From NCBI GenBank assembly GCA_017547385.1, contig JAFYPU010000006.1:142896-206895 (forward strand): 64,000 nucleotides of DNA. Direction: 5' to 3'. A model generated the notes under the pieces. It saw only the letters and a list, made by a program, of their open reading frames with translations, was not told where the DNA came from and did not search any database. Position numbers and translations under genes: made by a program. This document shows positions 5,418-56,674 of this stretch, one piece after another. Origin of the DNA: Bacteroidaceae bacterium (GTDB lineage: Bacteria; Bacteroidota; Bacteroidia; Bacteroidales; Bacteroidaceae). How positions within the stretch are numbered: position 1 is the stretch's first letter; the number at the start of each line of letters is the position of its first letter.

Positions 5418-5485
5418 AAAATCTGCAGTGCTTGCAGAATTTTTTGCAGTGCTTGCAGAAATTTCTAAACGCCTTGCAGATTTTT
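5418..5485 (+). repeat. Modular 21-nt-period intergenic element, copy 1 (P-P-Q)
   Basis: Three 15-nt cores joined by A/T hexamers. P = CTGCAGTGCTTGCAG, Q = CTAAACGCCTTGCAG; a prime means reverse complement. Order here is P, P (first base changed), Q, bounded by AAAATCTGCA and TGCAGATTTTT. The box AAAGTGTCAG follows 26 nt later (5512-5521). The copy lies in the divergent pckA/upp intergenic region (5106-5585), which otherwise holds only the two promoters. Confidence 0.85.
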
Positions 5486-5528
5486 GCCTGTTCGGAAGGC
5501 AGATTTCGTGTAAAGTGTCAGGAGGTCC

Positions 5529-5559
5529 TTGGCGGATTGGCGAGATTGCTATACTTTTG
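5529..5559 (+). promoter_or_regulatory. upp promoter (TTGG / TACTTTTG)
   Basis: -7 box TACTTTTG at 5552-5559 with a weak -33 TTGG at 5529-5532, spacing 19 nt. About 20 nt of leader precedes the upp ATG. Confidence 0.6.
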
Positions 5560-5585
5560 TTGAGAAACCAAGAAATCAAAGAACA

Positions 5586-6251
5586 ATGAAGGTAATCAAT
5601 CTTGGAGCCACTCATTCGGTGGTGAATGCTTATATGGCTCAGCTGCGCGATGTTGAATTGCAGAAAAACCGAACGCTCTTTCGCAACAATCTGAAACGCA
5701 TTGGCCATGCCATGGCTTACGAACTGAGTCGCACGTTGGCTTATTCGGACAAAGAGGTACGTACTCCCTTAGGGGTGAAGGTGGTGCCCACTTACGATGA
5801 CCGCGTTGTGGTGGGAACGGTGTTGCGAGCCGGACTGGCTTTTCACGAAGGTTTTTTGGATATTTTTGACGGGGCAGACAGTGCTTTTGTTTCGGCCTAT
5901 CGTGATGAGGGAAGCCGTGAGGAGTTGCAAATCTACATCGACTATCTCGCCACACCGAAGTTGGATGGTTGCACATTCTTGTTGGTGGACCCGATGCTGG
6001 CCACAGGTGGCAGCATGGAGCTTGCTTATAAGGCATTCGTGCGAGCCGGTGTTCCGGCCCGACTGCACATATGCTCGGTCATTGCTTCTCGCGAGGGCAT
6101 CGAGCGTTTGCAGAGGGTGTTCCCTTCAGACGAGGTTACGCTCTGGGTGGCCGGTGTTGATGACGAACTGAATGAAGCAGCCTACATCGTGCCCGGATTG
6201 GGTGATGCGGGCGATTTGTGTTTCGGACCGAAGCTTTCGGGTGTTTTTTAA
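5586..6251 (+). CDS. upp: Uracil phosphoribosyltransferase
   Basis: Salvages uracil with PRPP to give UMP in the cytosol. 221 aa. The PRPP-binding loop is LVDPMLATGGSM, and the C-terminus has the PGLGDAGDLCFG-type uracil-binding segment of UPRTases. The frame is open from 5529, but MKVINLG at 5586 gives normal family length and the promoter -7 box lies inside the longer version, so 5586 is chosen. Single-gene unit closed by a strong terminator. Confidence 0.95.
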   Translation: MKVINLGATHSVVNAYMAQLRDVELQKNRTLFRNNLKRIGHAMAYELSRTLAYSDKEVRTPLGVKVVPTYDDRVVVGTVLRAGLAFHEGFLDIFDGADSAFVSAYRDEGSREELQIYIDYLATPKLDGCTFLLVDPMLATGGSMELAYKAFVRAGVPARLHICSVIASREGIERLQRVFPSDEVTLWVAGVDDELNEAAYIVPGLGDAGDLCFGPKLSGVF

Positions 6252-6329
6252 GGCCGGGGTCGGTAGCCGTCTGGCGATGTAATGAAACCGGGATGGCTTT
6301 GCATCGTCAGTGCCGTTGAAAGAAAAAAA

Positions 6330-6377
6330 CGGGGACAACTGCTTGAAAACTCAAGTGGTTGTCCCCGAACTTTTTTT
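6330..6377. terminator. Bidirectional terminator between upp and the minus-strand lipoprotein gene
   Basis: 15-bp stem with two G-U pairs (6330-6344 with 6353-6367), 8-nt loop. It has T7 on the plus side (6371-6377) and a T-run on the minus side (6323-6329 read in reverse), so it serves both convergent genes. Confidence 0.85.
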
Positions 6378-6401
6378 GAGAGCGGTGGAAATCGTTTGTG
6401 A

Positions 6402-7400
6402 TTACTTCAGCAAATCCGAAACCCTCTGTTCCAAATTTTTCGGTGCAATGTCGCGTGCCACGATGCGTCCCTCGGCATTGAGTAACAGGATGCCCGGAAT
6501 GTGTCGAACGCCGAGCAGACTGACAAGGGGGGAGGAAAAGGCGCGACCGTCGCAGATGGTGGGAACGCTCTGCAGCGTGTCGGTTTGCAGTCGCTTGTCG
6601 ATGAGTCTGCGGTCGGTGTCGAGCGAAATGATAAGCATTCCCAACTTGTCTTTATGGGCGTTGCGCAAACGGCGAAGCGTCTGAAAAAGATAAGGTGTGT
6701 CGTTGCTCCATCCGGCGCAGAAGAGGATGATGGCCGGCTTGCCTTTCAACTCGTGGGCCATCACTTCTCTTCCATCGATGGTGGCAGCCTTGAAATCGGG
6801 CAGTGGCTTTCCGACGGTGTTTACCAACATTCCGCGATAATAACTGTCGAGGCGGGAAACTTCCGCATTGTCGGGCTGGGCTTTACGGATAGCGTCCAGC
6901 AATCCGAGAGCACTTTCTTCAAAATGTTCGGGCTTGAGGAAGTGCTCTTTCAGTACGGCAACGGCGGCTTGCGTACCGGCATTGTCGCGAATGAATTGGG
7001 CGGCTGCCATCTGTATGTCCGATACAGATTTTTTGAGATTATGCAATCGGAAATCGGTGAGCAGTTCGTTTTCCTCTGTACCGGTGATTTCGGTGGCCGA
7101 AAGGTGTCCGGCATTTCCTTTCACCTTGATTTCTTCTCCCGGCTCGGCGATGATGGGTAGCTCCGAAAAGTTGGGAAAAAGCAATGTCAGTGTGGTGGAT
7201 TTGGCCAAAGGTCTTTCATATTCGAAATCGCCGTTCTCGATTTTCAGTGTGTCGAGACCGGGAAATACACCTTCCGGGCTGTAAATGTAGCACTCGGCTT
7301 GTTTGATGCTCTTAAAGCTTCCGGTGATACGGATACGGTCATCGGCCACTCCGCACGAGGCGAGCAGCAAGGTGAACAATAGGAACGGAATTTTCTGCAT
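6402..7400 (-). CDS. Lipoprotein with DUF4369-like N-terminus and degenerate thioredoxin fold
   Basis: 332 aa from MQKIPFLLFTLLLASCG, a lipoprotein signal with lipobox LASC. The frame opens further up at 7433, but that extension lies inside a terminator hairpin. The first ~110 residues resemble the beta-sandwich domain found N-terminal to TlpA-like proteins in Bacteroidetes (FEYERPLAKSTTLTLLFPNF). The C-terminal ~140 residues are an AhpC/TlpA-type thioredoxin fold (VGKPLPDFKA, KPAIILFCAGWSND, LGVRHIPGILLLNAEGRIV). Where TlpA has WCxxC, this protein has FCAGWSND, so the redox pair is missing. Envelope-located; a binding or structural role is more likely than a reductase role. Confidence 0.75.
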   Translation of the reverse strand: MQKIPFLLFTLLLASCGVADDRIRITGSFKSIKQAECYIYSPEGVFPGLDTLKIENGDFEYERPLAKSTTLTLLFPNFSELPIIAEPGEEIKVKGNAGHLSATEITGTEENELLTDFRLHNLKKSVSDIQMAAAQFIRDNAGTQAAVAVLKEHFLKPEHFEESALGLLDAIRKAQPDNAEVSRLDSYYRGMLVNTVGKPLPDFKAATIDGREVMAHELKGKPAIILFCAGWSNDTPYLFQTLRRLRNAHKDKLGMLIISLDTDRRLIDKRLQTDTLQSVPTICDGRAFSSPLVSLLGVRHIPGILLLNAEGRIVARDIAPKNLEQRVSDLLK

Positions 7401-7417
7401 GCGATTGAGAAAAGCAA

Positions 7418-7456
7418 AAGTCCCAAGGCACACAGTCGAGGCGTGTCTTGGGACTT
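7418..7456 (-). terminator. Terminator of the OmpA/TPR lipoprotein gene
   Basis: 14-bp stem (7418-7431 with 7443-7456, one G-U), followed on the minus strand by TTTTGCTTTTC. It lies between the stop at 7491 and the next start at 7400. Confidence 0.75.
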
Positions 7457-7490
7457 CTGTGTTATGCGTTCGCGGAAATGAAATCCGCTA

Positions 7491-9185
7491 TTACTTAATC
7501 AGTTCAAGGAAAGCTGAATTGTTGAAAAGCGACAAGAACTCAAGGTCCTTGGCAGCACGCTCCTTGTACGAGGGATCCAACTTGATGGCTGTGCCGAGGT
7601 GGCTGAGAGCTTCGGCAGCCTTGTTGGTGCGAGCGGCAACGATGGCTTTCAGATAGTTGGTGGTAGCATTTTCGCTGCTGAGACCGGCCAAAGTGGTGGC
7701 TGCTCCGGCATAATCCTTGTTGAGGATCTGTGCGAGCACAGTGCTGTTTGAAGCCTTGCCATTGAGTGCGCTGACAGCCTGAGCGTAGTTACCTTTTGCC
7801 ACTTGCAGGTTGCCGAGCAGCTCGCTGTAGTTGGGAGCGGTTGTGGCGCGAGCCAAAAGAGTTTCGGCTTCGTCAATCTTTCCTTCTGCCATAGCTACAA
7901 GTGCCTTGTTCGCAAACACTTCAGGTGCATTGGCATTGAGTGATGCTGCCTTGTCGAGGTAGGCTTTTGCAGCCTCCAGGTCGCTATCTGCGTATGCCAA
8001 TGCGGCCATGTTGTTGTAGGCGCGGAAATCATTGGGATACTGCTTGATGGCTGTGGCATAGATGTCTTCTTTGCCGGTAGAGGTGAGTGTGGCAGCGTAG
8101 AGCAACTCTTCGAGGCTCAACTGTGTGGGATCGTTTTTATACTGGCTTTGGATTTCAGCGTCTGTGCGACCCACGATGTTGTAGTGGATGGTGAGGCGGG
8201 CGCGGCGAAGCTCGGGCAGAATTTCGTCAGCGAGTTCGCTGAAAGCCACAGAAAGGTTGCGGATTTGTGCTTCGCGTTCTTCGGGATCGGGATACATTGA
8301 CAAAACGCGCAGAATGGCATCCTTGTCTTGGATGTTGGATGCGGCAACGAGTTCTTGGAAACCTTCCCAGTCCTCAGCTGTGTAGCGAGTGTTGATGTCG
8401 GCGTTCAGACCGATTTCCTTCAACTGACCGCGCACGTAAGTGGCTGAGCTGCGTTCGCGAGCTGCGGCGAGACGGCTGTTAAGGTCGGTGGCACCATCGG
8501 GTGAAGCGTAGGCAGAAATTTCGATGTCGCCCATCTGAAGTCCTTTCTGGTCTTCCTTGATTTCGCGGAGTGTGCGGATGAAATCCTGCACAGAAGTTGT
8601 CTTCAGCTCGCTGGTACGCACTTTTGCCTGTTGGATGAGGTAGCGAATTTGTGCGCTTTTTGTCTGTGCGATGATGTACTGGTATGCATCCGGAGCTACA
8701 GCGGTGTTGGCACCGGAGAGCGTTTTGCCGAGCAGGGCCGAAGTTGCCACTACGCCATCAGCGATTTTCACTTCGGGCACTTCCACTTGGCGTTTTCCCA
8801 CTTGGGCGGTGAAAGTCAGGAACAGTTCGCTCTGTTGCATCTCGGGGATGTAGGCGAATGTGTTACGCATGGTGTAGTTTCCACCCACCTTGTAGGCAAT
8901 TTCCTGATTGTTTCCCTGCACTTTTTCTCCCTGGAAAGTGGCAGATTGTCCCACTGCTTCGCCACCGGCATAGCGCAGAACGGGTGTTACAGTAACGATA
9001 GCTTTTTTCTTCATGTATTTTTCGGGAAAGCGACCGTTGATGGTAACGGGAACTTGCCCTGCCACAGCTTCCAGAGGGGAAGGAGTAACGGTGAAGTTGT
9101 CGGCCGAAAGTTCGCCGAGCTTGTTGCAGGAACTCAGTGCCACGGTGGCGGCGAGTGCTGCGGTAAGGAAAAATTTGCTGTTCAT
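7491..9185 (-). CDS. OmpA-like / TPR outer-envelope lipoprotein
   Basis: 564 aa. Signal with lipobox SSC (MNSKFFLTAALAATVALSSC). An N-terminal beta-rich domain (about 25-170) with NFTVTPSPLEAVAGQVPVT is followed by an OmpA-C-like peptidoglycan-binding region (GDIEISAYASPDGATDLNSR, LAAARERSSATYVRGQL, about 240-290). The C-terminal ~200 residues are TPR-like helices (RAYNNMAALAYADSDLEAAK, LDKAASLNANAPEVFANKAL). Likely a periplasm-facing outer-membrane lipoprotein bridging peptidoglycan and partner proteins; the partner is unknown. It has its own promoter and terminator. Confidence 0.8.
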   Translation of the reverse strand: MNSKFFLTAALAATVALSSCNKLGELSADNFTVTPSPLEAVAGQVPVTINGRFPEKYMKKKAIVTVTPVLRYAGGEAVGQSATFQGEKVQGNNQEIAYKVGGNYTMRNTFAYIPEMQQSELFLTFTAQVGKRQVEVPEVKIADGVVATSALLGKTLSGANTAVAPDAYQYIIAQTKSAQIRYLIQQAKVRTSELKTTSVQDFIRTLREIKEDQKGLQMGDIEISAYASPDGATDLNSRLAAARERSSATYVRGQLKEIGLNADINTRYTAEDWEGFQELVAASNIQDKDAILRVLSMYPDPEEREAQIRNLSVAFSELADEILPELRRARLTIHYNIVGRTDAEIQSQYKNDPTQLSLEELLYAATLTSTGKEDIYATAIKQYPNDFRAYNNMAALAYADSDLEAAKAYLDKAASLNANAPEVFANKALVAMAEGKIDEAETLLARATTAPNYSELLGNLQVAKGNYAQAVSALNGKASNSTVLAQILNKDYAGAATTLAGLSSENATTNYLKAIVAARTNKAAEALSHLGTAIKLDPSYKERAAKDLEFLSLFNNSAFLELIK

Positions 9186-9236
9186 TTGAATATGAATTGA
9201 AAGTTAATTTCTGTTTTTGTGCATTGTTTCTTTGGG

Positions 9237-9244
9237 CAAAGATA
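9237..9244 (-). promoter_or_regulatory. -7 promoter box (TATCTTTG)
   Basis: Perfect TAnnTTTG on the minus strand, about 50 bp upstream of the OmpA/TPR lipoprotein start. Confidence 0.6.
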
Positions 9245-9330
9245 ATGCGTATGTGGCTTTTTTTGTCGTTTGGATGGGCTTATTTAGTGCTTTTTTTTGA
9301 AAAAACGGGCGGCGTTTTAACATTTGTAGA

Positions 9331-10179
9331 CTATTCTCCCAATTTTCGGCAGAGTTTTCCACCCAACAAACTGTAGATTCCGATGATGATAAACGGCAGA
9401 CTGAGCATCTGTCCTTGGTTGAGACCGATGGCCTGCACCATCTGCAACTCCCAAGGCTCTTGCACCTCTTTGCAGAACTCCACGAAGAAGCGGAAAACAA
9501 AGATGGTGGTGAGGCAGAAACCAAAGAAAAATCCTGTGCCTACTTTTTGCTTATACCTATAATATATTAGGACGCTTGCGACAAAGAAGACGAAATAGGC
9601 GATGGCTTCGTAGAGTTGCGCCGGATGCCGGGCAAAGTTTTCGCCCAGGTGAGCGAACACAAATCCATAGTCTGTGCCGGTGGGTTTGCCCACTATCTCG
9701 GAATTCATGAGGTTTCCCAGGCGTATGCAGCAGGCTGTGGCGGGTGTGGCAATGGCGATATTGTCGAGCACACGCATCAGGTTGATTTTGGTCTTGCGCA
9801 CATAAAGCCACAGGGCCAACATCAGTCCCAGCGTGCCACCATGCGAGGCCAGTCCGGCGTATCCGGTGCATCGCCAACCGCCATCGGGCGTTTCGCGAAT
9901 GGGGAGAAACATTTCGATGGGGTGTGTCAGAAAATAGCCCGGCTCATACAGCAAGCAGTGTCCCAAGCGTGCTCCGGCCAAAATGCCGACGAAGCAATAG
10001 AGAAACAATGGGTCGAACTTCTCTTGCGAAATGCCTTGTTGCCGATAGAGCTTGTAGACCACGAAATAGGCCAACGCCAACCCTATGCACCAGCACAAGG
10101 AATACCAGCGCAATTCGAAGTTGCCCAAATGCAGTGCCACCACATCGGGATTCCAAAGAATTGAATTGAAGATGGGCAT
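9331..10179 (-). CDS. lgt: Prolipoprotein diacylglyceryl transferase
   Basis: Transfers diacylglycerol from phosphatidylglycerol to the lipobox cysteine of prolipoproteins in the inner membrane. 282 aa, polytopic. The conserved blocks are present in order: LGNFELRWYSLCW near the N-terminus, YAGLASHGGTLG (essential His), RLGNLMNSEIVGKPT and RHPAQLYEA. It starts 8 bp after the ychF stop, so the two are probably co-transcribed. Its substrates include the many lipoproteins in this window. Confidence 0.96.
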   Translation of the reverse strand: MPIFNSILWNPDVVALHLGNFELRWYSLCWCIGLALAYFVVYKLYRQQGISQEKFDPLFLYCFVGILAGARLGHCLLYEPGYFLTHPIEMFLPIRETPDGGWRCTGYAGLASHGGTLGLMLALWLYVRKTKINLMRVLDNIAIATPATACCIRLGNLMNSEIVGKPTGTDYGFVFAHLGENFARHPAQLYEAIAYFVFFVASVLIYYRYKQKVGTGFFFGFCLTTIFVFRFFVEFCKEVQEPWELQMVQAIGLNQGQMLSLPFIIIGIYSLLGGKLCRKLGE

Positions 10180-10187
10180 GGCGGTGT

Positions 10188-11291: not shown

Positions 11292-11321
11292 AGGTGTATT
11301 ATGTATTTTTGTTTATGGGTG

Positions 11322-11352
11322 CAAAGTTAGTGCAAGGCGAGTGGAAAGCAAA
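11322..11352 (-). promoter_or_regulatory. ychF promoter (-33 TTTG / -7 TAACTTTG)
   Basis: On the minus strand TTTG (11349-11352), a 19-nt spacer and TAACTTTG (11322-11329) match the Bacteroidetes housekeeping consensus. The -33 box lies inside the first copy of the 86-bp duplicated segment. Confidence 0.75.
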
Positions 11353-11490
11353 GCAAAAACGCTGTTTTTAGGTTTGCTTTCCCGAGCCGCAGCCTAACTT
11401 GGGCTTTGCCAAAGTGTTCAAGGCGAGTGGAAAGCAAAGCAAAAACGCTGTTTTTAGATTGACTTTTCCGAGGTGCAGCCTGATTGCGCC
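11333..11490. repeat. 86-bp tandem duplication upstream of ychF
   Basis: A 39-nt segment is repeated perfectly at 11333-11371 and 11419-11457, an 86-nt offset. The following ~30 nt are also alike but diverged (GCAGCCTAACTTGGGC against GCAGCCTGATTGCGCC). The rest of the 11292-11782 intergenic region holds repeat copy 2 and the promoter of the next plus-strand gene. Confidence 0.9.
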
Positions 11491-11497
11491 TTGCGGG

Positions 11498-11565
11498 AAA
11501 ATCTGCAGTGCTTGCAGAATTTTCTACAAGCACTGCAGAAATTTCTAAACGCCTTGTAGATTTTT
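11498..11565 (+). repeat. Modular 21-nt-period intergenic element, copy 2 (P-P'-Q)
   Basis: Cores: CTGCAGTGCTTGCAG, CTACAAGCACTGCAG, CTAAACGCCTTGTAG with A/T hexamer linkers. The G/A change in the second and third cores keeps near-palindromic pairing. At the +26 position the box is weak (GGGTATTCAG). Divergent ychF / sorting-domain-gene region. Confidence 0.85.
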
Positions 11566-11718
11566 GCCCGTTTTATCGGTGATTTTCGTGAGGGTATTCA
11601 GCTTGCTGAAAAAGGGGGTGCAAAACAAGTTGGTGGCCGATGTGGAGAGTGAAGCGTGGGTTTGTCTATAAAATTTTGTGCTTTGTCTATTTTGTGTGTA
11701 CTGCTGCGGTGAATCCTC

Positions 11719-11726
11719 TATCTTTG
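11719..11726 (+). promoter_or_regulatory. -7 promoter box (TATCTTTG)
   Basis: Perfect TAnnTTTG on the plus strand, about 57 bp before the chosen start at 11783. Confidence 0.55.
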
Positions 11727-11782
11727 CGCAAAAATAAGCACACATGGAATGGCCTTGCAAAGGCTTGAATAACAAGGATAAC

Positions 11783-14409: not shown

Positions 14410-14435
14410 CGCTCGGAAGAACTTTGGAAAAACAC

Positions 14436-14478
14436 CAACGGTGCGCAAACACTTGAGATGTGTGTTTGCGCACCGTTG
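14436..14478. terminator. Terminator between convergent genes (beta-helix gene and rnc)
   Basis: 17-bp perfect stem (14436-14452 with 14462-14478), 9-nt loop, extended by flanking AACAC/GTGTT. On the minus strand it is followed by GTGTTTTTCC, a usable T-tract for rnc. Confidence 0.75.
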
Positions 14479-14492
14479 ATGTGTTAGGGCAT

Positions 14493-15767: not shown

Positions 15768-15779
15768 ACGTGCGTTTTC

Positions 15780-17045: not shown

Positions 17046-17083
17046 AGTTATTTCTAAAATGTTGCGACCTTATTAAATACCTA

Positions 17084-17661: not shown

Positions 17662-17729
17662 AAAAATCTGCAGTGCTTGCAGAATTTTCTACAAGCACTG
17701 CAGAAATTTCTAAACGCCTTGCAGATTTT
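17662..17729 (+). repeat. Modular 21-nt-period intergenic element, copy 3 (P-P'-Q)
   Basis: Cores CTGCAGTGCTTGCAG, CTACAAGCACTGCAG, CTAAACGCCTTGCAG with A/T hexamer linkers, starting AAAAATCTGCA and ending TGCAGATTTT. It lies between the manC stop and the acpP promoter. No AAAGTGTCAG box on either side. Confidence 0.85.
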
Positions 17730-25523: not shown

Positions 25524-25572
25524 CACAACTTTTTCCACTGACTAAAAATGCGCCGGCACGGCGCAGATTTCC

Positions 25573-25633
25573 GCAAGGCGTTTAGAAATTTCTGCAGTGC
25601 TTGTAGAAAATTCTAAACGCCTTGCAGATTTTT
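25573..25633 (+). repeat. Modular 21-nt-period intergenic element, copy 4 (Q'-P-Q)
   Basis: Cores CCGCAAGGCGTTTAG, CTGCAGTGCTTGTAG, CTAAACGCCTTGCAG with A/T linkers. The left end is altered (GATTTCC instead of AAAATCT). It lies after the EnvC-like gene. The rest of 25524-25953 is T/C-rich with no recognisable gene, apart from the promoter box at 25919. Confidence 0.8.
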
Positions 25634-29455: not shown

Positions 29456-29523
29456 AAAATCTGCAGTGCTTGTAGAATTTTCTGCAAGCACTGCAGAAAA
29501 TTCTAAACGCCTTGTAAATTTTT
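29456..29523 (+). repeat. Modular 21-nt-period intergenic element, copy 5 (P-P'-Q)
   Basis: Cores CTGCAGTGCTTGTAG, CTGCAAGCACTGCAG, CTAAACGCCTTGTAA with A/T linkers. AAAGTGTCAG follows exactly 26 nt later (29550-29559), on the side of the argB promoter. Together with the terminator and promoter it accounts for most of 29372-29689. Confidence 0.85.
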
Positions 29524-29633
29524 GCACACCGAAAGCTCGATTTTTTGTCAAAGTGTCAGGCTTCATTCTGAGGCAGATGGCCTTTTTCGTAGGCCGTAGG
29601 TTTCCCTTTTCGTGGGAAACTCGTACCTTTGCG

Positions 29634-35303: not shown

Positions 35304-35324
35304 AAACGCGCACCCATTCCCGAG

Positions 35325-35391
35325 AAATCTACACGGCGTTTAGAATTTTCTACAAGCACTGCAGAAATTTCTAAACGCCGTGTAAATTTTT
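35325..35391 (+). repeat. Modular 21-nt-period intergenic element, copy 6 (Q'-P'-Q)
   Basis: Cores CTACACGGCGTTTAG, CTACAAGCACTGCAG, CTAAACGCCGTGTAA. The outer two cores carry matching changes (ACACGG / CCGTGT), so the ends still pair. The box AAAATGTCAG follows exactly 26 nt later (35418-35427), on the side of the sigma-factor promoter. Confidence 0.85.
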
Positions 35392-35489
35392 GCGCATCTC
35401 AACCCCGTTTTTCCGACAAAATGTCAGCGTTTTTTTCTTCCTTTCCCGTCAAAATCGGAAGGGAAGAAATTTTTTTTCGAACAAATCTG

Positions 35490-40449: not shown

Positions 40450-40665
40450 CCTTCCTCGAAGGCACAGGTCGGAGGAGTGTTGGCAGCGGCAGGTCTTCTG
40501 ACTTTTCCCCGCTCGACACGCCTTCCCGGTGCAGCCGCCATGTGTGTGGCTGACCAGTGGCTCGGTGTGTGTCGGCGAAAATGGGAATTACAGCAGCGGG
40601 ACTGTACGGGACTTGCACCCGTTTCCCTTTTCATCGCGCTCCCAAGGGGAGTGGCGAACCGTTGC
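40450..40665 (-). promoter_or_regulatory. Cobalamin (adenosylcobalamin) riboswitch
   Basis: Read on the minus strand it contains the family core in order: GGGTGCAAGTCCCGTACAGT and CCGCTGCTGTAA (40588-40620), GCCACTGG (40554-40561) and the B12 box AGTCAGAAGACCTGCC (40488-40503). Between the core and the gene, GTGCC/GGCAC (40446-40450 with 40461-40465) can form a small hairpin, a candidate expression platform that hides the ribosome-binding region. It governs btuB and the btuG-like gene. Confidence 0.95.
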
Positions 40666-40670
40666 GTGGG

Positions 40671-40701
40671 CAAAGGTAAGGCAAACACGATGAACAGACA
40701 A
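40671..40701 (-). promoter_or_regulatory. btuB operon promoter (CTTG / TACCTTTG)
   Basis: Minus strand TTG (40699-40701), 20-nt spacer, TACCTTTG (40671-40678). Transcription would start at the 5' edge of the riboswitch. Confidence 0.7.
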
Positions 40702-40747
40702 GGGATGCTGCCGCTTTTTCTTTTCTTTGAAGCGTAATAAACTTTTT

Positions 40748-40870
40748 CGCAGTGCTTCCAAACTTGCCCACAATGCTCATAAAGTATATCCCAAGCCTTG
40801 CAATATATATTTCAAGGCTTGCAATAAATATCTCAAGGCATGCAATATATATTGCAAGGCATGAGATATA
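40748..40870 (+). repeat. Diverged 21-nt-period core array
   Basis: Six consecutive 15-nt cores with 6-nt A/T-rich linkers: CGCAGTGCTTCCAAA, CACAATGCTCATAAA, TCCCAAGCCTTGCAA (40789), TTTCAAGGCTTGCAA (40810), TCTCAAGGCATGCAA (40831) and TTGCAAGGCATGAGA (40852). The last is in the opposite orientation to its neighbour. The linkers of the last four are TATATA or TAAATA. Same design as the nine interspersed elements, but different core sequence. It lies between the divergent btuB and metK promoters. Confidence 0.8.
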
Positions 40871-40930
40871 GTTTTCCTGCGCTTTCGGCGAACTCTTTGC
40901 GCCTTTTGTGATTTTTTATGAAACTCTCCG

Positions 40931-40962
40931 TTGTGTTATGTAGGCGGAAAAGCGTACCTTTG
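40931..40962 (+). promoter_or_regulatory. metK promoter (TTGTG / TACCTTTG)
   Basis: TTGTG (40931-40935), 19-nt spacer, TACCTTTG (40955-40962). The transcript would begin a few nt before the SAM-II-like aptamer. Confidence 0.7.
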
Positions 40963-40977
40963 CAGCCGAAAAGAAGA

Positions 40978-41025
40978 ATGTGGACAGATTTGGCTGCTTG
41001 CAACCACGGTAAAAAATGCTAAAAC
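40978..41025 (+). promoter_or_regulatory. SAM-II-type riboswitch aptamer upstream of metK
   Basis: P1 is GTGG (40980-40983) with CCAC (41004-41007). The loop contains GATTT and the conserved TTGCA (40998-41002). After P1 come GGTAAA and GCTAAAA (41018-41024), the 3' strand of the pseudoknot. Order and spacing follow the SAM-II family (GAUUU...UUGCA-P1'-UAAA-GCUAAA). Downstream, CGTGG and TTGCAA (41046-41058) can pair with TTGCAACCACG of the aptamer (40998-41008), a natural on/off switch. The rest of the 140-nt leader shows no other signal. Confidence 0.85.
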
Positions 41026-41166
41026 ATACGGCCTCAGTGTGCGGTCGTGGCATTGCAAAGACGGGCGTGTGCCCGAAAGTTTTCACTCAGCCTTATCTTG
41101 AGATACCATGTTCTGCCTTCGACTTTCGGAGACAGATTATTTTTTATATATACCAACGATAGAAAA

Positions 41167-45095: not shown

Positions 45096-45103
45096 TATCT
45101 TTG
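45096..45103 (+). promoter_or_regulatory. rnpA -7 box (TATCTTTG)
   Basis: Perfect TAnnTTTG 26 bp before the rnpA ATG. Confidence 0.6.
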
Positions 45104-45129
45104 TCCGGCAATAAGAAAATCCAATATTC

Positions 45130-45743: not shown

Positions 45744-45785
45744 CGGACATTGTGTTTTTCTTCCGTTTGTTTGAAAAACAGAGAT

Positions 45786-46364: not shown

Positions 46365-46409
46365 CACGAAGGAGGAAATCATCCGAGATATTATGGAAAT
46401 AATAGCGTG

Positions 46410-46475
46410 AAAATCTGCAAGGCGTTTAGAAAATTCTGCAAGCACTGCAGAATTTTTTAAACGCCTTGCAGATTT
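46410..46475 (+). repeat. Modular 21-nt-period intergenic element, copy 7 (Q'-P'-Q)
   Basis: Cores CTGCAAGGCGTTTAG, CTGCAAGCACTGCAG, TTAAACGCCTTGCAG; left end AAAATCTGCA, right end TGCAGATTT. The right end overlaps the left arm of the following terminator by 4 nt. The only copy between convergent genes. Confidence 0.85.
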
Positions 46476-46514
46476 CGCCCCAAAGCCTTGTGTGGTTTTG
46501 GGGCGAAATGTTGT
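46472..46514 (+). terminator. Terminator of the TatD-like gene
   Basis: 13-bp stem (46472-46484 with 46497-46509), 12-nt loop, then GTTGTTTTT. It lies between convergent genes. Confidence 0.75.
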
Positions 46515-46528
46515 TTTTCCGAAGAGGT

Positions 46529-48163: not shown

Positions 48164-48221
48164 GTGTGTATGTGATTATTTAATGTTGTCGGATAAAACT
48201 GATTTGCGGAGTTCGTGTTGC

Positions 48222-51200: not shown

Positions 51201-52019
51201 CTTTATGATGTGTGCGCTGCCCGTAATCCACAATCCGTTGTTGCTGAGGCGTGCTGTGGAGATGTGGCTTATGTTGTCTGCTTTGGCTTCCCAAGAAAAC
51301 ACAGGGTCGTCCTCAAATCCCACCATGCTGTAGCTGTCGGTCTCGGTGTCGTAAACGTAATAGCAGATACCGCCGGCATATTCAGCCATGGGGAGGTAAG
51401 AAAACGACATGCATCCCAGGATGTATCGGCCGTCGGCCGAGATGCTCACGAAGCGGTTTTGCCCTTTGTCCTCGTGCGCCATGTCCTTGGTGGGAATGCC
51501 CGGAGTGGCAATCAGTTCGCCGGTGGTGATGTCCCATAGGGCTTGTGTCTCTTTGTAGAGGTCGGAGGTATAGGTGAGCTTGCCCACGGCATATCGGCCA
51601 TCAGCGGTAATCGAAAAGGCTACGCCGCCGTCGGCTTCTGTTCCGGTGCTCAGCAAGGTGTAACGCCCGGTGGCTTTGCTCCAATAGGCAGGCCGTTCAT
51701 TCAATTCGCCCACCACAATAGTACCGTCGTTGTTCACGTCATTGGCGGCGGCACTGATGATTTCGGCTTCGTCGTAGGCGGTTGTGAGCAGGGTGCTCTC
51801 TTCGGTTTCGATGTTGATAAGGCGCGGGCCTGTACGGAAGAGCGAGTTGGCCGAATTGGTGGCATCGGCCGCTGCCCACAGACCATTGTCCGACATGCTG
51901 TTGATGAGCGCAGCGTCATCGAATTTGAAAAAACGAAAATGGGGTGCTCCTTGTGCAAATGCCGTATGTGCAAGCAACGAACTGAGGAGCAAAAGGAGGC
52001 TGAACAGTGTTCTTCTCAT
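48222..52019 (-). CDS. Large T9SS-secreted multidomain protein with Omp28-type domain
   Basis: 1265 aa. Signal peptide ends TAFAQ. Domains in order: a beta-propeller-like part (~25-390, for example VAFSITADGRYAVGKLTYTS); SbsA-type Ig-like repeats (~395-625, VSPTAGAALSKLQKIKVNFG); a choice-of-anchor J region (~636-820, TLFYDDFDNGLMNFMFYEGD, KSDDWMVMPQVFI); an Omp28-type thioredoxin-like region at about 935-1180 with EEMTGQGCVNCPLGKLAIEK; and a T9SS type A sorting domain (MVVAKVTTISGCFTKKLLLN). The Omp28 part parallels the genes at 24-1946 and 28577-29371. Probably a surface protein with thiol-binding activity; target unknown. Confidence 0.8.
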   Translation of the reverse strand: MRRTLFSLLLLLSSLLAHTAFAQGAPHFRFFKFDDAALINSMSDNGLWAAADATNSANSLFRTGPRLINIETEESTLLTTAYDEAEIISAAANDVNNDGTIVVGELNERPAYWSKATGRYTLLSTGTEADGGVAFSITADGRYAVGKLTYTSDLYKETQALWDITTGELIATPGIPTKDMAHEDKGQNRFVSISADGRYILGCMSFSYLPMAEYAGGICYYVYDTETDSYSMVGFEDDPVFSWEAKADNISHISTARLSNNGLWITGSAHIIKEVEGSQFGTEYDAPYLMNVTTGEFTLFDATEDADKGGWTVDNLGNVMGASPISNPYRDWSVRSGLYWFDIDLILKQKYGIDYTAKTGYDNTGTPMTIADNGCRIAIMADIEGSYVLEIPETFASTCTDIDLLGQYTVSPTAGAALSKLQKIKVNFGRYVKVLGAANCVEIRDAEGATVYTSVGLSAESHSKTVNITFRKGALEAGKAYTLHIPAGSICIEGDETRTNRDIDIDYMGRADIPVQLTNAYPADNATFAQIDYAANPIILTFDTEVMIAEAVQADLYRTGENETCAKLLMSYGGKQVAVYPATTEYLYKDVEYKVVIPAGVITDLAGNNANSEIVLNYVGAYEREISFDDKTLFYDDFDNGLMNFMFYEGDGRTPNSTMQSWGFADATNYPWSLVRDNTSSTDMSACSHSCYEPAGKSDDWMVMPQVFIPDNLCVLKFQGQSYKHTATDMLRVIVWENNSVYNALTPSIVEKMRSEGTTVFHERLTPGATEDGLDGEWSEYSVDLRQFAGKNIYIAFINENEAQSALMINNVEVTHNIPFLVTLDNASSVVNKDNLIIKGRITIDTEAETYSSAELVLKNAAGIVVSRLSAENLNLKKGDVYPFEFTEALPLEKGKNNAYSIDVRLDNTENTINAAVKNLQFQPVKRVVLEEMTGQGCVNCPLGKLAIEKISSTFGNQFIPIALHTYTGDNLGAGLEAYNSFLGLNAAPSGIINRSGFIAAPMMSIDGDYVFNGVNGEKLWLDLVQEELAVPADAEISATASFNTDSTAIVIPCSVKFALEAEKQNLNLFAVILEDNVKGYQRNTFGGISDADLGEWGEGGSLSAGTTYPFYHNHVARATIGQTFNGTGGYIPANVVAGKEYSADITAMLPANAIDLSRLHVVVMMIDANTGRVVNATQCAVKAYDPVGIHHIAGEAPRVRVSDNEITVQTSEQSQVQIYTGDGTLLAGAAGKGTLTLPTRGYKGMVVAKVTTISGCFTKKLLLN

Positions 52020-52111
52020 TATGAATGGTTTTTATGTGTTTACGAAAGGAATGAAACGGTAAGGAGTTCGGTGTGTCGATAATCCGGGCCTTTTCGGGAA
52101 TATATACCGCG

Positions 52112-52119
52112 CAAAGTTA
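52112..52119 (-). promoter_or_regulatory. -7 promoter box (TAACTTTG)
   Basis: Perfect TAnnTTTG on the minus strand, about 90 bp before the start of the 1265-aa T9SS gene. Confidence 0.6.
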
Positions 52120-52204
52120 CGAAAAAACACTTTAAGGTGTTGAGTTTCTGCGATAATTGTGCATTTCTCGGACACTTTGTTCGAAAAATGGGGATTTGAT
52201 GGAC

Positions 52205-52272
52205 AAAAATTTACAAGCACTGCAGAAATTTCTAAACGCCTTGCAGAAAATTCTGCAGTGCTTGCAGATTTT
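52205..52272 (-). repeat. Modular 21-nt-period intergenic element, copy 8 (P'-Q'-P on the minus strand)
   Basis: Read on the minus strand: CTGCAAGCACTGCAG, CTGCAAGGCGTTTAG, CTGCAGTGCTTGTAA. The box AAAGTGTCCG follows exactly 26 nt later (52169-52178 on the plus strand), facing the -7 box at 52112. With the tdh terminator this explains most of 52020-52384. Confidence 0.85.
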
Positions 52273-52312
52273 GCCCCGAAGCCTTGCCGTTTTTTCTCGA
52301 CGTAAAAAGAAA

Positions 52313-52353
52313 TCCCCACAAGCTCCGCCGGTCATCGGTCGGGCTTGTGGGGA
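52313..52353 (-). terminator. Terminator of tdh
   Basis: 11-bp perfect stem (52313-52323 with 52343-52353) with a small inner CCG/CGG pair, followed on the minus strand by TTTCTTTTTACG. Confidence 0.8.
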
Positions 52354-52384
52354 GGCTGAATGAAGTGTCTCAACTTTTCGCTTG

Positions 52385-53338
52385 TCAGCGCAAACGTGCG
52401 GAGAGTTTCTCCAGCATGTCGCGTGTCATGCTGTCAAGATCGTATTTGGCGCACCAATCCCATTCTTGGCGGGCACAGATGTCGTCAAGGCTGTTGGGCC
52501 AGCTGTCGGCATTGTTCTGCTTGAGCGGTTCCACCTTGTAGGTCATCTTGAAGTCGGGTTTGTATTTTCGGATGGCTGCGAGAATTCCTTCGGGGTCGAA
52601 GCTCATCGCTGCGATGTTGAAGGCATTGCGGTGGATAAGGCGTGTGGGGTCGGCTTCCATGAGGTTGACACACGCGTCAAGAGCATCAGGCATGTACATC
52701 ATGTCCATGTAAGTTCCGGCAGCGATGGGGCATACAAAGTCCTCACCACGCACCGCGCTGTAGAAGATGTCCACGGCATAGTCGGTGGTGCCGCCGCCCG
52801 GTGGGGTTACGTAGGAGATAAGTCCGGGAAAACGAACGGAACGTGTGTCTACACCATACTTTTTGAAATAATAGTCGGAGAGAAGTTCTGTCGTTACTTT
52901 GCTCACTCCGTAAATGGTGATGGGTCGCTGGATGGTGTCTTGCGGTGTGTGGTTGCGCGGTGTCTCCGGACCGAAAGAGCCGATGGAACTCGGCGTGAAC
53001 ACGGCACAACCATTCTCGCGGGCAATCTCAAGAATGTTCCACAGACCATCAATTCCAATCTTCCAAGCTAGCATCGGCTTCGACTCGGCCACAACCGAGA
53101 GCAAAGCCGCCAGGTTGTAGATGGTGTCGATGTCAAACTTCTTCACAACTGCGTCAATGCCTGCGCAGTCGGTTACGTCGCAGATTTCTGCAGGTCCGCT
53201 TTCTTTGAGCTCGCCTTTGGGTTCTGCTCCCGGAATGTAGCCCGCCACAACATGGTCGTTGCCATAAATGCAACGCAGTTTCATGGTCAGTTCAGAGCCT
53301 ATCTGTCCTGTTGCACCGATTACCAAAATGTTTTTCAT
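52385..53338 (-). CDS. tdh: L-threonine 3-dehydrogenase, SDR (epimerase-like) type
   Basis: Oxidises L-threonine to 2-amino-3-ketobutyrate with NAD+. 317 aa. Rossmann motif GATGQIGSELTMKL (8-14), TIYNLAALLSVVAES, and the catalytic Tyr/Lys in ITIYGVSKVTTELLSDYYF (about 143-147). FDVDTIY-like FDIDTIYNLAA and YMDMMYMPDALDACVNLMEA are characteristic of this threonine-dehydrogenase branch rather than sugar epimerases. It is divergent from kbl, which uses its product. Candidate promoter: TTCCTTTG at 53380-53387, one mismatch to TAnnTTTG. Confidence 0.9.
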   Translation of the reverse strand: MKNILVIGATGQIGSELTMKLRCIYGNDHVVAGYIPGAEPKGELKESGPAEICDVTDCAGIDAVVKKFDIDTIYNLAALLSVVAESKPMLAWKIGIDGLWNILEIARENGCAVFTPSSIGSFGPETPRNHTPQDTIQRPITIYGVSKVTTELLSDYYFKKYGVDTRSVRFPGLISYVTPPGGGTTDYAVDIFYSAVRGEDFVCPIAAGTYMDMMYMPDALDACVNLMEADPTRLIHRNAFNIAAMSFDPEGILAAIRKYKPDFKMTYKVEPLKQNNADSWPNSLDDICARQEWDWCAKYDLDSMTRDMLEKLSARLR

Positions 53339-53577
53339 AGCACTGGATTTATGAAAAGTGGTTAATAGTCTTCACGATACAAAGGAATAGTTTTTTTCAT
53401 AAATTCGCCACAAACGCCTTGATATTTTCAAAAAAATACGTTCCTTTGCCTACAACGCTATGCTCATGGCCGGAACGCCTTTCCTTATGGGTGATTTCGG
53501 CTGTTGCCATATCCGATTTTTCGGAAGGCAATCAGAGAGCCTGAGAGTCATTTTAAACTTATTTAAACATATTTCTT

Positions 53578-54765
53578 ATGTACGGTAAAATGCAACAGCA
53601 TCTCCAGCAAGAACTGGAGGCAATCAAGGAAGCCGGTCTGTACAAAACAGAACGACTCATCGAAGGTCCGCAACAAGCAGCCATCAATGTGAACGGCAAG
53701 GAAGTGCTCAACTTCTGCGCTAACAATTATCTGGGACTCTCCAACCATCCTCGCTTGGTGCAGGCCGCGAAGGACATGATGGACCGTCGCGGTTACGGCA
53801 TGTCTTCCGTGCGTTTCATCTGCGGAACACAGGATGCGCACAAAGAGCTTGAAACTGCCATCTCGCGCTTCTTCAAAACTGAGGACACCATTCTCTATGC
53901 TGCCTGCTTCGATGCCAATGGTGGCGTGTTCGAGCCGCTGCTCACTGCAGAGGATGCCATTATTTCCGATGCCCTCAATCACGCTTCCATCATCGACGGT
54001 GTGCGTCTCTGCAAGGCCAAGCGTTATCGCTACGCCAATGCCGACATGGCCGACCTCGAACGTTGCTTGCAGGAAGCCCAAGAACAGCGTTTCCGCATCA
54101 TCGTTACCGATGGTGTGTTCTCTATGGACGGAAACGTGGCTCCCATGGACAAAATCTGCGACTTGGCTGAAAAATACGACGCTCTCGTGATGGTGGACGA
54201 AAGCCACAGCGCCGGTGTTGTGGGTGCCACAGGCCGCGGTGTGAGCGAGTTCTACAACACTTACGATCGCGTGGACATTTACACAGGCACACTTGGTAAG
54301 GCCTTTGGTGGTGCTATGGGTGGTTTTACAACCGGTCGCAAAGAAATCATCGACATGTTGCGTCAGCGCAGTCGCCCCTATCTTTTCTCCAACTCCCTCG
54401 CCCCTGCCATCGTAGGTGCTGCGCTCGAAATGTTCGCCATACTTGACGAAAGCAACGAGCTTCACGACCGTTTGGTGGAGAATGTTGAGTATTTCCGCAC
54501 CAAGATGATGGCTGCTGGCTTCGATATCAAGCCCACGCAGAGTGCCATCTGTGCTGTGATGCTCTATGATGCAAAACTTTCACAAGTTTATGCCGCTCGC
54601 ATGCAGGAGGAAGGCATTTACGTAACCGGCTTCTACTATCCCGTAGTGCCGAAGGATCAGGCTCGCATCCGCGTTCAGCTTTCGGCCGGACACACTCGCG
54701 AACACCTCGACAAGTGCATCGATGCCTTCATCAAGGTGGGTAAGGAACTCGGAGTGCTGAAATAA
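53578..54765 (+). CDS. kbl: Glycine C-acetyltransferase (2-amino-3-ketobutyrate CoA ligase)
   Basis: PLP enzyme that splits 2-amino-3-ketobutyrate with CoA into glycine and acetyl-CoA, completing threonine breakdown with tdh. 395 aa. N-terminal [35 protein letters not shown], cofactor-binding [12 protein letters not shown], and the Schiff-base lysine in [20 protein letters not shown] (about 241). Candidate promoter TTCCTTTG at 53441-53448 leaves a leader of ~125 nt. Closed by a strong terminator. Confidence 0.95.
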
Positions 54766-54808
54766 GAATTTGTCAAGCCTTTCGGAAAAACCGAAGCTTC
54801 AGATAAAG

Positions 54809-54846
54809 AATATCCCCGCTGAAACCATGATTTCAGCGGGGATATT
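54809..54846 (+). terminator. Terminator of kbl (also faces ybeY)
   Basis: 16-bp perfect stem (54809-54824 with 54831-54846), 6-nt loop, short T-rich tail. As a near-perfect palindrome it may also end ybeY transcripts. Confidence 0.8.
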
Positions 54847-54905
54847 TGTATTGTTGCGCAAGGCTAAGGAAAACCGGCACGTGCCTTGTTTGAAAAGTTG
54901 CGGAC

Positions 54906-55340
54906 TTACAAAATGCTTGGTAATTGGGACATCCGCATCTCCAAAGCCTTGTTTTCGGCGGCTTCCATGATTTCGCGTTCGCCGGGACCCTTGTCATCGA
55001 TGCCGCAAAGGTGCAGGATGCCGTGTATGATGACTCTGAAAAGCTCTTCCATGTATTCGCAACCCTGCTCCTCGGCATTCGATCGCACGGTGTCAAGGCT
55101 GATAAAAAGGTCGCCGCTGATACGATTTTCTTCAGTGTAGTCGAAAGTGATGATGTCCGTGTAATAATCGTGGTTGAGGTATTCGCGGTTTACTTCGAGT
55201 ATCTTCTCATCATCGCAGAAGATGTAAGCGATATCGCCTATGCTTTTGCCATATTCGGCTGCTACGGTGCGTATCCATGCAGACACTTCGCGGCGGCGCA
55301 GTTTCGGCATCTTGATGTTTTCGGATTGGTAGGAAATCAT
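54906..55340 (-). CDS. ybeY: rRNA maturation RNase YbeY
   Basis: Metal-dependent RNase for 16S rRNA 3'-end maturation. 144 aa. The zinc motif is FRVIIHGILHLCGIDDKG (H-x3-H). The third histidine of the classic HGxLHLxGYDH motif is replaced by DK, which Bacteroidetes homologues also show. LNHDYYTDIITFDYTEENRI and SGDLFISLDTVRSNA precede it. 91 bp after ruvB on the same strand. Confidence 0.93.
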   Translation of the reverse strand: MISYQSENIKMPKLRRREVSAWIRTVAAEYGKSIGDIAYIFCDDEKILEVNREYLNHDYYTDIITFDYTEENRISGDLFISLDTVRSNAEEQGCEYMEELFRVIIHGILHLCGIDDKGPGEREIMEAAENKALEMRMSQLPSIL

Positions 55341-55431
55341 AGGGCTATGATTGTGTGATTTTGTTCGATGGAATGGGGATTTTTGTTGTTGTCTTTAATG
55401 AGTCGCAAGGTGCTTGCGCCTTTTGCCCGAC

Positions 55432-56475
55432 TCAGAACAGCGTTGGCTGCTCGGGATTGGCGGCATACGGCAGTGGGCGTCCCAAATGTTGGTAGGCGAG
55501 TTCGGTAACTTCGCGGCCTCGCGGCGTACGGCGGATGAAGCCCTCTTTGATGAGGAAAGGTTCGTAAACTTCTTCCAGTGTGCCCGGGTCTTCACCGATG
55601 GCTGTGGCAATGGTCGAAACTCCCACGGGGCCGCCTTTGAACTTGTCGATGATGGTCGACAAAATCTTGTTGTCGATTTCGTCAAGGCCGTAGCGGTCGA
55701 TGTTGAGTGCTTCCAGTGCGAAGCGGGCTATGCCGATGTCAATGCTGCCGTTGCCTTTCACTTGTGCAAAGTCGCGCACGCGACGCAGCAAAGCATTGGC
55801 GATACGCGGTGTGCCGCGTGAGCGACCGGCAATCTCGGAGGCCGCTTTCTCGTCGATGGGCACTTGCAGGATGTCGGCCGAACGGCGCACAATGCGTTGC
55901 AAGGTCCGGGCATCGTAGTATTCGAGGTGAAGATTGATGCCGAAACGGGCACGCAGCGGCGCGGTGAGCAGACCACTGCGTGTGGTAGCTCCGACGAGGG
56001 TAAAGGGATTCAGGTCAATCTGAATGCTGCGAGCTGCCGGTCCGCGGTCAATCATGATGTCGATGCGATAGTCTTCCATGGCTGAATAAAGGTATTCCTC
56101 CACCACGGGAGAGAGTCGGTGAATTTCATCAATGAAAAGCACATCGTTCGGCTCGAGCGATGTGAGCAGGCCGGCCAAATCGCCAGGTTTGTCGAGCACC
56201 GGTCCGGAAGTTATCTTGAAGCCTACGCCCAGTTCGTTGGCAATGATGTTTGAGAGTGTTGTTTTGCCAAGTCCGGGAGGGCCGTGCAGCAATGTGTGGT
56301 CAAGGGGTTCGCCACGATACTTCGCAGCCTCCACAAACACGCACAGGTTCTCCACCACCTTTTGTTGTCCGCTGAAATCGCCGAAGCGCAAGGGGCGCAA
56401 TGCGTTCTCAAAGTCGCGTTCGGTGGCAGCCGGTGTGTGTTGTTCCGACCGTATGTCAAATGTATCTTCTTTCAT
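55432..56475 (-). CDS. ruvB: Holliday junction DNA helicase RuvB
   Basis: AAA+ motor driving branch migration with RuvA. 347 aa. Walker [13 protein letters not shown] (65-73), Walker [12 protein letters not shown], sensor [18 protein letters not shown], and a C-terminal winged helix ([29 protein letters not shown]). MKEDTFDIR at 56475 is chosen over the in-frame ATG at 56484 because that codon would lie in the promoter -7 box. ruvA is not in the window. Confidence 0.97.
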
Positions 56476-56481
56476 GGGGAG

Positions 56482-56489
56482 CAAAGTTA
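56482..56489 (-). promoter_or_regulatory. ruvB -7 box (TAACTTTG)
   Basis: Perfect TAnnTTTG on the minus strand, only 6 bp from the ruvB ATG at 56475, implying a leaderless or nearly leaderless mRNA. Confidence 0.6.
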
Positions 56490-56606
56490 AAGATTTTCCG
56501 TTAAATCCTCAGCTTTGACCGGATAAACCTGTGGTGTGTTGTTGCTTTTGCACTTGCCGTCCCGAGAGAGCCACTTTGCAGCCTGTTTCCTCCCTGCGGC
56601 ATGGCC

Positions 56607-56674
56607 AAAAATCTGCAAGGCGTTTAGAATTTTTTGCAGTGCTTGCAGAAATTTCTAAACGCCTTGCAGATTTT
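56607..56674 (+). repeat. Modular 21-nt-period intergenic element, copy 9 (Q'-P-Q)
   Basis: Cores CTGCAAGGCGTTTAG, TTGCAGTGCTTGCAG, CTAAACGCCTTGCAG with A/T linkers; ends AAAAATCTGCA and TGCAGATTTT. It lies between ruvB and cydB. No AAAGTGTCAG box at +26 on either side. Confidence 0.85.

What the first reader, a model, noticed from the sequence alone, without database searches (positions are those of the whole stretch)
5418..56674. Nine copies of a modular 21-nt-period intergenic element built from invertible 15-nt cores
Copies at 5418, 11498, 17662, 25573, 29456, 35325, 46410, 52205 and 56607 all consist of three 15-nt cores separated by A/T hexamers, so the period is 21 nt, two helical turns. 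Only two core types occur, P (CTGCAGTGCTTGCAG) and Q (CTAAACGCCTTGCAG), in either orientation. Orders seen: PPQ, PP'Q (three times), Q'PQ (twice), Q'P'Q (twice) and P'Q'P. The ends are inverted (AAAATCTGCA / TGCAGATTTT). All copies are intergenic, about one per 5-6 kb. The design resembles REP/BIME mosaics, but the strict helical phasing and core shuffling are unusual. No transposase or RAYT gene is in the window. Possible roles are phased binding sites for a nucleoid or partition protein, or a non-autonomous mobile element.
Basis: seen in the sequence. Interest (0 to 1): 0.8.

Follow-up and report, generated by a model that had tools for sequence, protein, structure and literature searches.

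The report
Evenly spaced triple 21-bp intergenic palindromes
Between the genes of this uncultured gut bacterium lie short DNA elements, each made of three 21-letter palindromic blocks, spaced rather evenly along the chromosome and mostly kept in place in a sister species while their letters change, which hints at a DNA-organising role.

Summary
In detail: all nine copies are three 15-nt cores with 6-nt A/T linkers. The sampled 19.6% of the genome has 59 such elements, intergenic, never two in one intergenic region (IGR), spaced more evenly than chance (CV 0.50; shuffles 0.86-1.16). In 41 of 59 the outer cores are complementary types; Q'-x-Q elements form one long palindrome with compensatory changes, and the "invertible" middle core is a loop pentamer flipping. 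In a sister species 26 of 30 arrays lie at the orthologous place; 14 of 25 three-core pairs differ in core order.

New: A/T tracts keep 21-bp phase for 200 bp or more into unconserved flanks; a second family with other stems also has three modules; three of four sampled congeners have other cores at 21-22 bp; orthologous IGR lengths change in multiples of 21 nt (54 of 64 changes within 3 nt; 4 of 20 in comparably diverged pairs of another genus).

RNA or terminator roles fit poorly and no cognate RAYT was found in two drafts. Best reading: three-site arrays, two helical turns apart, for an unidentified DNA-wrapping protein, in intergenic DNA gained and lost as 21-bp modules. A REPIN/BIME-like mobile origin is the main rival.

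The parts
5418..5484 (+). element 1, cores P-P-Q (5423, 5444, 5465)
   Evidence: sister array at the orthologous place, P-P'-P'
5511..5521 (+). TAAAGTGTCAG motif 31 nt outside element 1
11498..11564 (+). element 2, cores P-P'-Q (11503, 11524, 11545)
   Evidence: sister P'-P'-P'
17663..17729 (+). element 3, cores P-P'-Q (17668, 17689, 17710)
   Evidence: sister same order
25566..25632 (+). element 4, cores Q'-P-Q (25571, 25592, 25613)
   Evidence: sister Q'-P'-Q with four compensatory double changes
29456..29522 (+). element 5, cores P-P'-Q (29461, 29482, 29503)
   Evidence: sister P-P-Q
29549..29559 (+). CAAAGTGTCAG motif 31 nt outside element 5
35324..35390 (+). element 6, cores Q'-P'-Q (35329, 35350, 35371), ACACGGCG/CGCCGTGT arm variant
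35417..35427 (+). CAAAATGTCAG motif variant 31 nt outside element 6
46410..46476 (+). element 7, cores Q'-P'-Q (46415, 46436, 46457)
   Evidence: six compensatory double changes in the sister
52206..52272 (+). element 8, cores P'-Q-P (52211, 52232, 52253)
   Evidence: no array called at the sister place, where one core-like stretch remains
56608..56674 (+). element 9, cores Q'-P-Q (56613, 56634, 56655)
   Evidence: sister same order, two compensatory double changes
40771..40875 (.). AT-rich 21-nt tandem repeat of another sequence (my family C)
11330..11492 (-). two copies of a repeat at 86-nt spacing (my family F; strand and promoter-like box inferred)
   Evidence: related sister sequences

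Best explanation
Each element is a set of three palindromic sites two helical turns apart, on one face of the DNA. Shown: three modules at strict 21-bp phase; outer arms mutually complementary in most; A/T tracts phased outward into unconserved flanks; intergenic, at most one per IGR; over-dispersed; mostly kept at orthologous places in one sister species while core order turns over. Inferred: dimers of an unidentified architectural (nucleoid or Lrp-like) protein bind the palindromes side by side and bend or wrap about 100 bp or more, and regularly spaced wrapped points help shape the chromosome. The elements probably arose by REPIN/BIME-like duplication and are now maintained (inferred). Flips of the middle core are inversions of the 5-nt loop of a long palindrome, by template switching or cruciform (inferred). 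More widely, intergenic DNA of this genus is gained and lost as 21-bp modules.
For: Three modules in 59 of 59 own elements (one nominal fourth core is a 4-mismatch hit), and 31 of 36 in the sister, 5 scored as four. Palindromic triplets: 18 arrays at spacing 21, 0 to 2 at each of eight other spacings. Density per intergenic kb near equal in tandem, divergent and convergent IGRs: own 0.88, 0.83, 0.80 (34, 16, 9 elements); sister 0.70, 0.70, 0.55 (23, 8, 5). Spacing CV 0.495 over 56 intervals against 1.16 (random in IGRs) and 0.86 (one per IGR), 0 of 2000 each; 0 IGRs with two elements against 13.3 expected. Sister: CV 0.68 against 0.95, 19 of 1000. A/T phase at 21 bp in 190 flanks beats jitter in all eleven 63-bp windows out to 384 bp (0 of 500 in ten, 1 of 500 in one). 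26 of 30 own arrays have an array at the orthologous sister place. 17 of 31 pairs change on both sides, 0 of 500 shuffles; slid controls 1 to 7. Family B, with other stems, had three modules in 12 of 12 arrays listed, with middle box AGCAC in 5 of 5 own. Precedent: Lrp-type sites two or three helical turns apart, and Ss-LrpB wrapping about 100 bp round three dimers (passages of PMC2995911).
Against: No protein is identified; no binding or expression data; an Lrp/AsnC gene was not searched for. In tandem IGRs 52 of 57 elements lie nearer the upstream stop codon (median 69 against 244 nt), as a terminator model predicts, though avoidance of promoters also explains it. Complementary arms are expected of REPINs or of palindrome-correcting mutation without function. 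TAnnTTTG boxes pointing away are not phased with the elements (R21 0.07, n = 94). Congeners' arrays often have one, two or four modules, so the number three is not general. Family B middle boxes are AGCAC in 0 of 7 sister arrays. Even spacing could come from transposition immunity or from deletion between close repeats.
Confidence: 0.45

Rival explanations
1. REPIN/BIME- or MITE-like non-autonomous mobile elements without host function, spread by an enzyme acting in trans on the hairpin; evenness and stability follow from selection against harmful insertions.
For: Dispersed, intergenic, strongly palindromic (RNA fold z about -11 for the Q'-x-Q types), modular, with families of different stems in one genome and letters changing between species. 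Four of 30 own arrays have no array at the sister place and one sister array is unmatched.
Against: One Y1_Tnp match in own and one in the sister, of subclass 1.2 signature, without P/Q arrays around it. At the four empty places no clean element-sized gap or target duplication is visible, but the IGRs are too diverged to be sure. 26 of 30 positions kept at coding identity 0.84-0.88. Phased flanks outside the element are unexplained. Both genomes are drafts (86.5% and 81% complete), so absence of a gene is not proven.
Confidence: 0.33
2. RNA-level hairpins: bidirectional intrinsic terminators or mRNA 3'-end stabilisers.
For: Long hairpin flanked by A-run and T-run; compensatory changes; 52 of 57 tandem elements nearer the upstream stop.
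Against: 24 of 95 elements lie in divergent IGRs, at similar density per bp. On the sense strand of 36 symmetric tandem elements, G-T cells (34) do not exceed A-C cells (36), p = 0.90, so wobble is not preferred. Linker columns 23/45 and 24/44 are unpaired in 20 and 18 of 41. A crude scan finds a conventional terminator between stop and element in 14 of 57 tandem cases, none in 43. None of the three Rfam matches in the window is an element.
Confidence: 0.13
3. Mutational by-product: intergenic 21-bp minisatellites that expand, decay and are made palindromic by template switching, without function.
For: 21-nt length steps, loop pentamers AGCAC 21 and GTGCT 20 of 41, decayed-looking arrays and the AT-rich repeat at 40771.
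Against: Fixed number of three in own, one per IGR, even spacing and positional conservation are not expected.
Confidence: 0.09

Closest known systems
BIME / REP and REPIN elements
   Same: Dispersed extragenic palindromic units in both orientations, hairpin-forming, often more than 100 copies per genome.
   Different: Here three units at strict 21 bp, no GTAG or CGTC tag at the foot, no REP-type RAYT found, A/T phase continuing outside. REP features from abstracts and one passage and recall; I have no measured comparison of positional conservation for REPs.
BrickBuilt MITE of Porphyromonas gingivalis (PMC4596501)
   Same: Also in Bacteroidales; always intergenic; built of short tandem units near two helical turns (23 nt); some sites shared with P. 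gulae.
   Different: 23-nt direct repeats, 1 to 22.8 copies, leader/tail with IS5-like terminal repeats, 19 copies per genome (outline, section 5 and section 7 part 1 read).
Lrp-type multi-dimer operators (Ss-LrpB)
   Same: Regularly spaced sites, centres two or three helical turns apart; about 100 bp wrapped by three dimers (passages).
   Different: There a few control regions in archaea; here hundreds of arrays and no known protein.
TnpA-REP subclass 2.6 of Bacteroidetes (PMC6006769)
   Same: Said to be flanked by atypical secondary structures with copies elsewhere in the genome (section 25).
   Different: Its signature (NH[LIV]H, YIH[QN]NP; passage) is not that of the Y1 protein of own or sister.

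Membership tests
REP/REPIN-RAYT | dispersed extragenic palindromes able to form hairpins | tested here: met
REP/REPIN-RAYT | GTAG or CGTC tag at the palindrome foot | tested here: not met
   41 aligned Q'-x-Q elements have AAAAT / ATTTT-like feet; tag definition from the abstract and one passage of PMC3733652
REP/REPIN-RAYT | cognate REP-type RAYT gene in the genome, flanked by copies | tested here: not met
   single Y1_Tnp match in each draft, subclass 1.2 signature, no P/Q array in its 3.3-kb locus; drafts incomplete
BIME | palindromic units in alternating orientation at regular spacing | tested here: inconclusive
   both orientations and fixed linkers, but no strict alternation
BrickBuilt-type MITE | tandem direct repeats | tested here: not met
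   three palindromic modules, mostly of mixed type or orientation
BrickBuilt-type MITE | leader and tail with IS5-like terminal inverted repeats | not tested
   no search for those letters was made; the flank profile of 95 elements shows only phased A/T tracts and weak positions
MITE in general | target-site duplication at filled versus empty sites | tested here: inconclusive
   four empty sister places, alignments too diverged
Intrinsic terminator | found at gene 3' ends, not between divergent genes | tested here: not met
   24 of 95 in divergent IGRs
Lrp-type multi-dimer operator | sites spaced two or three helical turns | tested here: met
   21-nt spacing
Lrp-type multi-dimer operator | bound by an Lrp/AsnC-family protein | not tested
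   no search for the protein was made

The most novel reading that the evidence does not exclude
Intergenic DNA of this genus is organised on a 21-bp (two-turn) module lattice read by a DNA-wrapping protein. The three-module arrays are evenly spaced nucleation points; species change the module letters but keep the period, and intergenic regions grow and shrink in whole modules: a bacterial counterpart of a nucleosome-positioning code.
Probability: 0.2. Interest if true: 0.93.

Novelty: new variant of a known kind. Interest (0 to 1): 0.72.

Why it matters
Some hundreds of positionally stable, helically phased triple sites (59 seen in 19.6% of one draft) would be a directly testable chromosome-organising system in uncultured gut Bacteroidales. 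A 21-nt step in intergenic length change between species turned up in none of my eight literature searches, which cover open-licence PubMed Central papers only. Even if selfish, the elements are a new design of modular palindrome: fixed unit number, strict phase and no evident partner enzyme.

Tried and rejected
RNA terminators: rejected as the main role. My first G-T/A-C count (39 against 40) was invalid because elements were not oriented by transcription and symmetry forces equality; redone on the sense strand.

RAYT mobilisation: no cognate gene found. One search read the wrong strand for own, sister and one G047 locus and was replaced for those.

'IGR length stasis is extraordinary': rejected. 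Pairs of another genus at similar divergence have 53 of 82 differences within 3 nt (own and sister 143 of 219); only the 21-nt steps are special. A global phase of gene ends, IGR lengths or outward promoter-like boxes to the elements: not found (21 inward boxes gave p = 0.036, untested further). 21-nt preference of coding gaps: not found. Periodic length of diverged blocks: not found. AAAGTGTCAG as a marker of gene starts: 20 of 105 ends facing starts, 10 of 85 facing stops, p = 0.23. The automatic same/different tally (11/15) holds one scoring artefact (65528); in-register assignment gives 11 same and 14 different of 25 three-core pairs.

Led nowhere: G088 and G089 as matched controls (too diverged, no match); synteny with samples of G009, G040, G004; the IGR downstream of one gene in 30 congener loci.
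Full report
OBSERVATION. The nine copies are real: three 15-nt cores at exactly 21-nt spacing with A/T linkers, all intergenic. The window lies at C26:142896-206895 of a draft genome of 2,354,218 nt in 34 contigs, 86.5% complete. The exact core Q' occurs 90 times there and 45 times in one congener, G008, and in none of the other 148 genomes of that search. The two-core pattern (up to 1 mismatch) gives 254 forward matches in own and 176 in G008 (reversed controls 1 and 1); of the other 56 congeners G047 has 13, of a different core, seven have 1 or 2, and 48 have none.

SAMPLE. I read C9 (256,944 nt), C26:1-140000 and the window: 460,944 nt. It holds 59 elements of three cores, a few with cores at 4 mismatches; ten further hits of one or two cores were dropped. 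My own gene caller puts them between genes, one overlapping a called gene by 1 nt. There are 34 tandem, 16 divergent and 9 convergent elements, 0.88, 0.83 and 0.80 per intergenic kb; in the sister 23, 8 and 5, at 0.70, 0.70 and 0.55. No IGR has two, where 13.3 doubles are expected; interval CV is 0.495 against 1.16 and 0.86 in two null models, 0 of 2000 each. In the sister (36 elements) CV is 0.68 against 0.95, 19 of 1000. Transposition immunity or loss of close repeats could also give this.

ANATOMY. Ends point outward as Q (66 of 118) or P' (39 of 118); both ends are of like, hence complementary, type in 41 of 59; Q'-x-Q is the commonest order (25 of 59). Q'-x-Q elements fold as one hairpin of about 30 pairs with a 5-nt loop (mean z about -11; other orders -5 to -11). 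On 41 such elements of both species 17 of 31 pairs show double changes, 0 of 500 shuffles, slid controls 1 to 7; the structure was taken from the consensus, which favours it. Inner linker pairs 23/45 and 24/44 are unpaired in 20 and 18 of 41. The loop is AGCAC in 21 and GTGCT in 20. Palindromic triplets at 21-nt spacing number 18; at eight other spacings 0 to 2. Outside the cores the A/T content of 190 flanks keeps a 21-bp phase in all eleven windows tested out to 384 bp, with little sequence conservation beyond about 30 nt. IGRs without such elements also show A/T autocorrelation at 21, 42 and 63 nt in own and sister, not in G004; decayed arrays and other families contribute. AAAGTGTCAG or a close variant sits exactly 31 nt (28) or 52 nt (2) outside 30 of 190 ends; the exact 10-mer occurs 30 times in 852,750 sampled nt, 22 of them at these places by my count of the rows; three of the four other own copies lie 84-85 nt beyond one.

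OTHER FAMILIES. Family B (GTGGCA-N5-TGCCAC): five arrays in own, seven in the sister, from a scan listing arrays of two or more modules; all twelve have three; the middle N5 is AGCAC in five of five own and none of seven sister arrays; one sister array fell in a called gene. Two AT-rich arrays (window 40771, C26 138613) and one TACCA array (C9 255040) were also seen. G009, G040 and G047 show other cores at lag 21 or 22, often in ones, twos or fours; a 100-kb sample of G004 shows none.

EVOLUTION. G008 C2 is colinear with C26. Of 30 own arrays of two or more cores in the aligned part 26 have an array at the orthologous place, four have none, and one sister array is unmatched. At one empty place (52211) the sister keeps a core-like stretch. 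With cores assigned in register, 11 of 25 three-core pairs have the same order and 14 another. Orthologous Q'-x-Q pairs show 16 compensatory double changes, 46 single changes that break pairing (many in linkers and ends), 18 double changes with neither paired (many of them loop flips) and 1 other. IGR length differences in C26 plus window: 77 of 99 within 3 nt, the other 22 all within 3 of a multiple of 21. On one pipeline, changes of 8-300 nt lie within 3 of a multiple of 21 in 17 of 17 (C26), 5 of 5 (window) and 32 of 42 (C9); chance is one third; eleven differences above 300 nt in C9 are left out. Three pairs of another genus of the family at coding identity 0.854-0.886 give 0 of 6, 3 of 7 and 1 of 7; seven further pairs at 0.753-0.768 or 0.961 give 9 of 45; these pairs are not independent, and one (G163-G180) clusters at another phase (R21 0.71, p = 0.018). 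Other pairs of the focal genus: 4 of 4, 4 of 5, 1 of 2 and no large change (p 0.05, 0.15, 0.9). Pairs of 78-81% identity elsewhere: R21 0.08, n = 69 of 89 differences (from; pairs of other identities left out). Unambiguous matched 20-nt segments within 60 nt of register in 66 IGR pairs are offset only by -2 to 3, or in size 18 to 24 or 41 to 45 nt. Some 84-108-nt steps are gain or loss of another repeat, family F, so this shows gain and loss in 21-nt units, not selection on helical phase.

FUNCTION. RNA roles are disfavoured: similar density in divergent IGRs, no wobble preference on the sense strand (34 G-T, 36 A-C, 36 elements), no Rfam match on an element. Against me, 52 of 57 tandem elements lie nearer the upstream stop. 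Mobility by a RAYT is disfavoured: the one Y1 match of each draft has DHVH, WQ and YILHQAEHH / YVGNQKEHH, like subclass 1.2 of PMC6006769, and no array around it. What remains is a phased three-site DNA element; the nearest working model is an Lrp-like three-dimer wrap, with no protein tested. I file it under no family.

LIMITS. Draft MAGs, home-made gene calls, one close sister, no wet data. Literature: PMC4596501 outline, section 5 and section 7 part 1; PMC6006769 passages and section 25; PMC3733652 one passage; PMC2995911 passages; other papers only as search listings.

Noticed in passing
window 40471-41032: A cobalamin riboswitch (minus strand, 40471-40678) and a SAM-II riboswitch (plus strand, 40974-41032) share one divergent IGR, with the AT-rich 21-nt repeat (40771-40875) between them.
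   Followed up: no
window 11330-11492 and sister places: Repeat with about 84-86-nt unit (family F), with GCTCGCCTTTCACTATCTTTG-like boxes, at times tandem; one query stretch gave about 40 short matches in G008.
   Followed up: partly
window 5511, 29549, 35417: AAAGTGTCAG-like motif at exactly 31 nt outside a minority of elements; 44 exact copies in the whole own draft.
   Followed up: partly
window 63327-64000: Tandem-like repeats of about 234-269 nt with TCAACAGATTGCACAGATT cores running to the window end.
   Followed up: no
L054:14893-14933, L053:8064-8105: 21-nt period repeats of another sequence (CAAAAAAGGTTAGACCTTTTT type) in two relatives.
   Followed up: no
L157 (flanks of a Y1 transposase gene of G004): Tandem AACCCCGATAGGGGTGGCATA-type hairpin repeats border the gene, a separate repeat class; similar-looking repeats stand by other Y1 genes.
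   Followed up: no
L112:16256-16417: A 23-nt unit repeated seven times in a Muribaculaceae MAG, the same period as BrickBuilt.
   Followed up: no
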